Positions 55,301 to 55,591 of a stretch of DNA of 64,000 nt are shown piece by piece. The DNA lies in IMG/VR virus record IMGVR_UViG_3300034684_000299, positions 62,001 through 126,000 of that record; one strand, written 5' to 3'. Numbering within the stretch: the first letter of the stretch is position 1; each line of letters begins with the position of its first letter. Both the position numbers and the translations under genes were made by a program. Below the pieces are notes generated by a model, which did not search any database, was not told where the DNA came from, and saw only the letters and a program-made list of their open reading frames with translations. This DNA is from a virus.

Positions 55301-55591
55301 ATGACATATTTGGGTAATGCTTTCTCCCTTCAAATGTTGGCGGAGATTCCGTCAACTTTGAAAGTGGAAGAGGTTTCTTGGGGAGAAATTCCCGCGGGAG
55401 TTGTTTCAGTTGTCGGACACCAAGACACGGCCCGTGTCTTGGGTGTTCCGTTTAATAGAGTATCTATAACGTTGGAAAAGGGTGACATTTTATATGTTGC
55501 CCAGCTCCAAGGAGGACGTCTCCCAGAGGGGGCTACCACGCTCCCCGAGGGATTTAGTTTTAAATATTTGAAAGTCGAGATTGTTGATTAA
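55301..55591 (+). CDS. AcrIII-1 anti-CRISPR ring nuclease (DUF1874)
   Basis: 96 residues. Pattern of the DUF1874 family: N-terminal YLGNAFSLQML, VSVVGHQDTARVLG with the catalytic His (H40; equivalent to His47 of the SIRV1 enzyme), VPFNRVSITLEKGD, and VAQLQGGRLPEGATTLPEG. AcrIII-1 proteins bind and cleave cyclic tetra-adenylate and so switch off type III CRISPR ancillary nucleases. AAAAGGAGG precedes the ATG. First gene before the RNA island; implies a host with type III CRISPR. Confidence 0.88.
   Translation: MTYLGNAFSLQMLAEIPSTLKVEEVSWGEIPAGVVSVVGHQDTARVLGVPFNRVSITLEKGDILYVAQLQGGRLPEGATTLPEGFSFKYLKVEIVD

What the first reader, a model, noticed from the sequence alone, without database searches (positions are those of the whole stretch)
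55301..55591. AcrIII-1 ring nuclease beside the RNA island
Family pattern and catalytic His in a GH-Q-D-T-A context identify a viral cyclic-tetra-adenylate nuclease. This predicts a host using type III CRISPR with cA4 signalling. Its placement near other RNA-based functions suggests an anti-defence block at 53-58 kb.
Basis: partly seen in the sequence, partly recalled or inferred. Interest (0 to 1): 0.7.

Follow-up and report, generated by a model that had tools for sequence, protein, structure and literature searches.

The report
Phage enzyme that disarms type III CRISPR
A large bacterial virus carries a 96-residue gene that is almost certainly a known kind of anti-CRISPR enzyme (AcrIII-1), which destroys the cyclic tetra-adenylate alarm signal of type III CRISPR immunity; it is a new member of a known family, with a shortened helix that most of its untested metagenomic relatives share.

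Summary
ORF 55301-55591 (+, 96 aa) is a DUF1874/AcrIII-1 protein. Profile E is 3.9e-13 to SIRV1 gp29. The AlphaFold model (pLDDT 97) gives Z 12.5 to the SIRV1 ring-nuclease entry 6scf. It superposes at 0.9 Å on the predicted model of THSA-485A AcrIII-1 (48-50% identical), which was shown elsewhere to abolish cA4-dependent type III immunity in E. coli. Catalytic His40 and the equivalents of SIRV1 R66, Q81, R85 and E88 are conserved. The gene lies in a 185-kb tailed-phage record. It is the highest-GC and highest-GC3 ORF of 180, so probably recently acquired.

The wider reading is only partly supported. The host is unknown, but 3 of 4 bacterial bins carrying close relatives hold Cas10 plus CARF effectors, against 13-19% with Cas10 in background orders. 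None of the 14 homologous loci checked shares the neighbouring 'RNA island', so a dedicated 53-58 kb anti-defence block is not shown.

New detail: 61 of 79 distinct relatives, including this one, lack exactly six residues of the helix after the catalytic His. No close relative of this form was found among catalogued phages, and I found no report of an assay. New member of a known kind; modest interest.

The parts
55301..55591 (+). AcrIII-1-type (DUF1874) ring nuclease gene, 96 aa
   Evidence: Pfam/PHROG/PDB sequence matches; model Z 12.5 to 6scf; highest GC and GC3 of 180 ORFs
55418..55420 (+). codon of the catalytic His40 (SIRV1 gp29 His47)
   Evidence: invariant column in 40 aligned relatives; H47A is inactive in SIRV1 gp29 (PMC7213978)
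55457..55459 (+). codon of Arg53 (SIRV1 Arg66 position)
   Evidence: invariant column
55517..55528 (+). codons of Arg73-Leu-Pro-Glu76 (SIRV1 Arg85 and Glu88 positions)
   Evidence: R73 invariant, E76 at least 90%
55418..55459 (+). shortened helix segment after His40 (His to Arg spans 14 residues, against 20 in SIRV1 gp29 and THSA-485A)
   Evidence: 61 of 79 distinct relatives have 14, 17 have 20, one has 21
55288..55292 (+). GGAGG ribosome-binding site, 8 nt before the ATG
   Evidence: sequence
55240..55273 (+). terminator-like hairpin (15 pairs, then CCTTTTTTT) separating the upstream ORF from the gene
55570..55602 (+). perfect 13-bp inverted repeat across the stop codon
54845..55246 (+). upstream ORF, 133 aa, no convincing family match; third-highest GC3 of 180 ORFs; not known to be part of the function

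Best explanation
The gene encodes a phage AcrIII-1 enzyme. It is inferred to work as a dimer: two subunits clamp cyclic tetra-adenylate (cA4), His40 acts as general acid and Arg73/Glu76 position the phosphate, and the ring is cut to linear A2>P/A2-P. This removes the second messenger that a host type III CRISPR complex (Cas10) makes on seeing phage RNA, so CARF effectors are not activated. Shown here: family, fold, conservation of the active site, phage location, atypical composition. Known for relatives: cA4 cleavage and loss of immunity. Inferred: cA4 cleavage by this protein, dimerisation, and that its own host uses cA4 signalling.
For: Sequence: PF08960 4.6e-5, phrog_5063 7.7e-13, profile to 2x4i 3.9e-13, 49.5% identity over 92 aa to THSA-485A DUF1874. 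Structure: pLDDT 97.3; Z 12.5, 2.3 A over 95 residues to 6scf; Z 10.5 to Csx1-Crn2 with cA4; 0.9 A, TM 0.94 to the THSA-485A model I3VYU1. THSA-485A AcrIII-1 almost completely prevented cA4-Csx1 immunity in E. coli (PMC7371418). Residues N6, S9, G39, H40, R53, Q68, R73 invariant and T43, E76 nearly so in 40 relatives. Carrier record is a tailed phage: terminase and major head protein. Three of four bins with short-form relatives carry Cas10 and CARF effectors, against 25/198 and about 29/150 (E<=1e-8, my count) with Cas10 in two background orders.
Against: No activity data for this protein or, as far as I found, for any short-helix member. PF08960 score is 2 bits under its gathering cut-off. 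Host unknown. One of four short-form bins and both long-form bins had no Cas10 match, though bins may be incomplete. B. subtilis carries a family member although that control genome gave no Cas10 match, so family presence does not prove a cA4 pathway in the host.
Confidence: 0.87

Rival explanations
1. Same fold but a different target: the protein cuts or sequesters another cyclic nucleotide (cA3, cA6, or a CBASS signal), the shortened helix having changed ring preference or turned it into a sponge.
For: An exact six-residue difference directly after the catalytic His segregates all-or-none in the family (61 short, 17 long, one with 21). No short member was found among catalogued phages. Sponges and other ring nucleases exist (PMC12409355).
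Against: All catalytic and ligand positions are kept. The model superposes at 0.9 A on the long THSA-485A enzyme, so the difference is local. Short-form carriers' bins hold Csx16, CARF-PDDEXK and Csx1-type proteins of the kind found in cA4 loci.
Confidence: 0.08
2. A passenger: a recently acquired, intact gene that is active in principle but has no target in the present host, because that host lacks type III CRISPR.
For: Highest GC, GC3 and fourfold-site GC of 180 ORFs in the virus; unrelated neighbours in the relatives compared; family present in genomes without a Cas10 match.
Against: Intact reading frame, good ribosome-binding site, all catalytic residues present.
Confidence: 0.12
3. It is Csx16 or a Crn2 of a CRISPR locus carried by the phage.
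For: PADLOC names its hit 'Csx16' (PDLC01147, 1.1e-5).
Against: That model also matches SIRV1 AcrIII-1 and THSA-485A AcrIII-1, while a genuine PF09652 Csx16 matches other models and not this one; no PF09652 match. No cas operon among the seven neighbours scanned.
Confidence: 0.02

Closest known systems
AcrIII-1 of Thermoanaerobacterium phage THSA-485A (UniProt I3VYU1)
   Same: About 49% identity, same fold at 0.9 A, same active-site residues, tailed phage
   Different: Its helix after the catalytic His is six residues longer (20 against 14 residues from His to Arg)
AcrIII-1 SIRV1 gp29 (PDB 2x4i, 6scf)
   Same: Fold (Z 12.5), His47/Arg66/Gln81/Arg85/Glu88 equivalents, virus-borne
   Different: 36% identity over 75 residues; archaeal rudivirus; longer helix; different C-terminal region
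Crn2, including Marinitoga Csx1-Crn2 (PDB 8y7g)
   Same: Same fold (Z 10.5) and catalytic His
   Different: Crn2 is host-borne in type III loci or fused to Csx1; this gene stands alone in a phage
Csx16 (PF09652, cA4 ring nuclease of type III loci)
   Same: Same activity class; a predicted Csx16 resembles 2j6b weakly (DALI Z 4.8 in PMC12409355)
   Different: No sequence match to PF09652; a true Csx16 lacks the GHxDTA and GGRLPEG motifs

Membership tests
AcrIII-1 (DUF1874, PF08960) | Sequence similarity to the DUF1874 family | tested here: met
   PF08960 4.6e-5 for the window protein (below gathering score), 40/40 aligned relatives match, best 4.2e-16; profile to 2x4i 3.9e-13
AcrIII-1 (DUF1874, PF08960) | Catalytic histidine in the GH motif and the Arg/Glu of the R-L-x-E-G motif | tested here: met
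   H40 and R73 invariant, E76 at least 90% in 40 sequences
AcrIII-1 (DUF1874, PF08960) | DUF1874 fold, distinct from CARF | tested here: met
   Z 12.5, 12.1, 11.9, 11.6 to 6scf, 2x4i, 2j85, 2j6b
AcrIII-1 (DUF1874, PF08960) | Encoded by a virus, outside a CRISPR locus | tested here: met
   IMG/VR virus record with terminase and head genes; no cas operon among seven neighbours
AcrIII-1 (DUF1874, PF08960) | Homodimer binding cA4 at the interface | not testable with these tools
   Only monomers can be modelled here
AcrIII-1 (DUF1874, PF08960) | Rapid metal-independent cA4 cleavage and loss of type III immunity | not testable with these tools
   Needs bench assay; shown for THSA-485A and SIRV1 relatives (PMC7371418, PMC7213978)
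Csx16 | Match to PF09652 / VVA1548 | tested here: not met
   PF09652 not among Pfam matches up to E 1; a true Csx16 hits PADLOC models other than the one this protein hits
Crn2 | Encoded in, or fused to an effector of, a type III CRISPR locus | tested here: not met
   Stand-alone gene in a phage; no cas operon in the seven neighbours scanned

The most novel reading that the evidence does not exclude
The exact six-residue shortening of the helix after the catalytic His marks a large, so far uncharacterised class of phage DUF1874 enzymes with altered specificity or kinetics (for example other ring sizes, or tight binding without fast cutting), spread across phages of several bacterial phyla.
Probability: 0.08. 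Interest if true: 0.5.

Novelty: new member of a known kind. Interest (0 to 1): 0.27.

Why it matters
It adds a large (at least 185 kb) uncultured phage to the carriers of AcrIII-1 and predicts that its unknown host uses type III CRISPR with cA4 signalling. The wider point is that most distinct AcrIII-1 relatives found here in viral metagenomes have a shortened helix. No close relative of that form turned up in the catalogued phage collection and I found no report that it was assayed, so the enzymology of this family may rest on the rarer form.

Tried and rejected
Csx16 identity (the PADLOC label is misleading). Conserved anti-defence block (no shared neighbours; no tmRNA, YrlA or Ro60 in the relative loci checked). 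More carriers for the Cas10 association: 295 genomes from the order of the Prevotellaceae bin, 150 from the order of the Desulfovibrio bin and 392 from the phylum of the Erysipelotrichaceae bin gave no new ones, so the association rests on four bins. Whether short forms are one clade: the tree has too few columns; seven label changes, of which well-supported branches force two. The original 2020 AcrIII-1 paper is not held, so ligand-contact positions other than His47 (R66, Q81, R85, E88, N8, S11, T50) are from my own knowledge. One call used a wrong model id and gave nothing.

Full report
The observation. The ORF exists with exactly these ends: 96 codons, ATG start, GGAGG eight bases upstream. 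The GH-Q-D-T-A string with His40 is there. Pfam PF08960 (STIV_B116-like, DUF1874) matches at E 4.6e-5, two bits under its gathering score, phrog_5063 at 7.7e-13, and phmmer finds the solved SIRV1 gp29 (2x4i) at 9.3e-7, then 6scf and 2j6b. It is the only copy in the record.

Relatives. tblastn against catalogued phages gives THSA-485A (49.5% over 92 aa), a methanogen-associated Caudoviricetes genome, and Sulfolobus viruses. A pattern scan of IMG/VR gives eight close relatives and, with an alignment, 112 (80 kept). Bacterial bins give seven loci. Across 40 aligned members N6, S9, M12, G39, H40, D42, R53, Q68, G72, R73, L74, P75 and G77 are invariant, and T43, A44 and E76 at least 90%. By the alignment, N6, S9, H40, T43, R53, Q68, R73 and E76 fall on SIRV1 N8, S11, H47, T50, R66, Q81, R85 and E88. 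His47 is the proven catalytic residue (H47A inactive, PMC7213978); the roles of the other positions are from my own knowledge of the 2020 AcrIII-1 paper, which is not held.

Structure. AlphaFold2 on the alignment gives pLDDT 97.3. The best solved structures are the SIRV1 entry 6scf (Z 12.5, 2.3 Å over 95 residues), 2x4i, STIV B116, AFV3-109 and the Crn2 part of Marinitoga Csx1-Crn2, including the cA4-bound H495A form (Z 10.5); the next unrelated fold is at Z 2.4. Among predicted viral proteins the best match is THSA-485A I3VYU1 at 0.9 Å and TM 0.94. That protein is the phage AcrIII-1 used as a control in PMC7371418, where it almost completely prevented cA4-Csx1 immunity in E. coli. The inference from fold and residues to function is therefore short.

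A discrete variant. From the catalytic His to the Arg of the NR motif this protein has 14 residues, both ends counted. SIRV1 gp29 and THSA-485A have 20. In 79 distinct relatives the count is 14 in 61, 20 in 17 and 21 in one, with nothing between. The missing stretch is the C-terminal part of the helix that starts at the catalytic His. No short form was found among the catalogued phages, even with a short-form query. I found no assay of a short form in the papers held. Because the rest of the model fits the long THSA-485A enzyme closely, I expect the same reaction, but this is untested.

Which family. PADLOC labels the protein Csx16. That is a labelling matter: the same model matches SIRV1 and THSA-485A AcrIII-1, 38 of 40 relatives and B. 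subtilis, whereas a genuine Csx16 (PF09652, fetched) matches other Csx16 models and not this one. The protein does not match PF09652. It is not in a CRISPR locus as far as seven neighbours were scanned, so Crn2 does not apply.

Context in the phage. The window is 62001-126000 of a 185,437-base virus record with a terminase and a major head protein. Mean GC of 180 ORFs of 80 aa or more is 30.6% (s.d. 3.5). The acr gene has 46.2% and ranks first. It also ranks first in third-position GC (42.7% against a mean of 22.3%) and fourfold-site GC, so amino-acid content alone does not explain it. The region 53.5-58 kb is raised as a whole (34-44%). This fits recent import. A terminator-like hairpin separates the gene from the upstream ORF. 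None of the neighbouring proteins was found near the gene in other carriers, and 14 carrier loci searched with Rfam have tRNAs but no tmRNA or YrlA; Ro60 is absent from all fetched carrier loci. A dedicated anti-defence block is thus not shown.

Host. I could not name the host. As an indirect test I asked whether bins carrying relatives have Cas10. Three of four bins with short forms do (Opitutaceae, Desulfovibrio, Prevotellaceae); the fourth (Dysgonamonadaceae) and two with long forms do not. The Opitutaceae Cas10 (Cmr2) lies beside a CARF5 protein, and the Prevotellaceae Cas10a in an operon with a Csx1/TM1812 CARF-HEPN protein. The Desulfovibrio bin has a III-A operon and, on another contig, Csx16 next to a CARF-PDDEXK nuclease; Csx16 is cA4-specific (PMC12409355). 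Background: 25 of 198 genomes in the order of the Prevotellaceae bin and, counting E<=1e-8 only, 29 of 150 in the order of the Desulfovibrio bin have Cas10 (the looser hits there are probably GGDEF domains). With four bins from different phyla this is suggestive, not proof; the carrying contigs may also be mis-binned phages.

Mechanism, step by step. Shown for relatives: AcrIII-1 (H47A variant) binds cA4 with an apparent KD of about 25 nM, the wild type cleaves it at about 5 per minute, and modelling and E. coli assays show that Csx1-based immunity is lost (PMC7213978; PMC7371418). Inferred here: the phage makes the protein, it destroys cA4 made by the host's Cas10, and host and phage RNA are spared.

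Verdict. A real, well-supported AcrIII-1 of a large uncultured phage, ordinary in kind. Worth keeping for the untested short-helix majority form.

Noticed in passing
window 55876-55948 +: A tmRNA tRNA-like domain without any tag/mRNA part: Rfam tmRNA 65.4 bits with 310 model positions replaced by 10 nt, a closed stem, G3-U70 and encoded CCA; the only tmRNA match in the 185-kb record. A pattern scan of IMG/VR found only six other short TLD-like stretches. It could be charged with alanine yet carries no reading frame.
   Followed up: partly
window 56330-56452, 56475-56609, 56634-56708, 56747-58069 (+): Two YrlA-like (Y RNA with tRNA-like module) RNAs (33.6 and 19 bits, below Rfam's cut-off 69; fold z -3.8 and -3.2), a tRNA-Asn, and a Ro60/Rsr gene about 50-55% identical to homologues in Brevundimonas, Xanthomonas and Caulobacter phages.
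   Followed up: partly
window 55603-55750: Strongly structured non-coding stretch just after the acr gene (fold z -5.0, none of 200 shuffles as stable); no Rfam family at the gathering score.
   Followed up: no
window 55301-55591 as scored by PADLOC model PDLC01147: The PADLOC model named Csx16 (PDLC01147) describes DUF1874/AcrIII-1 proteins, not Csx16 (PF09652), and would mislabel anti-CRISPR genes as defence genes.
   Followed up: yes
L016 9348-9662 and 9995-10315: A Saccharibacteria bin has two neighbouring, divergent long-form DUF1874 genes on one strand.
   Followed up: no
L012 913-1149 and L014 10802-11035: One Prevotellaceae bin holds two short-form genes on separate contigs, each with a related small neighbour ORF (64% identical, 78 aa), a candidate partner gene.
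   Followed up: no
window 41006-42638: HEARO/omega RNA (146 bits) followed by an IscB-type gene about 58% identical to IscB of Clostridioides difficile plasmids; similar IscB-like ORFs seem, by eye, to recur elsewhere in the record.
   Followed up: no
L116 17678 onward, L117 1-5516: The virus appears, by eye from motifs, to encode parts of a multi-subunit RNA polymerase beta chain; not tested with a profile.
   Followed up: no
window 36136-39168 -: Ribonucleotide reductase-like ORF with what looks by eye like an intein remnant in the middle.
   Followed up: no
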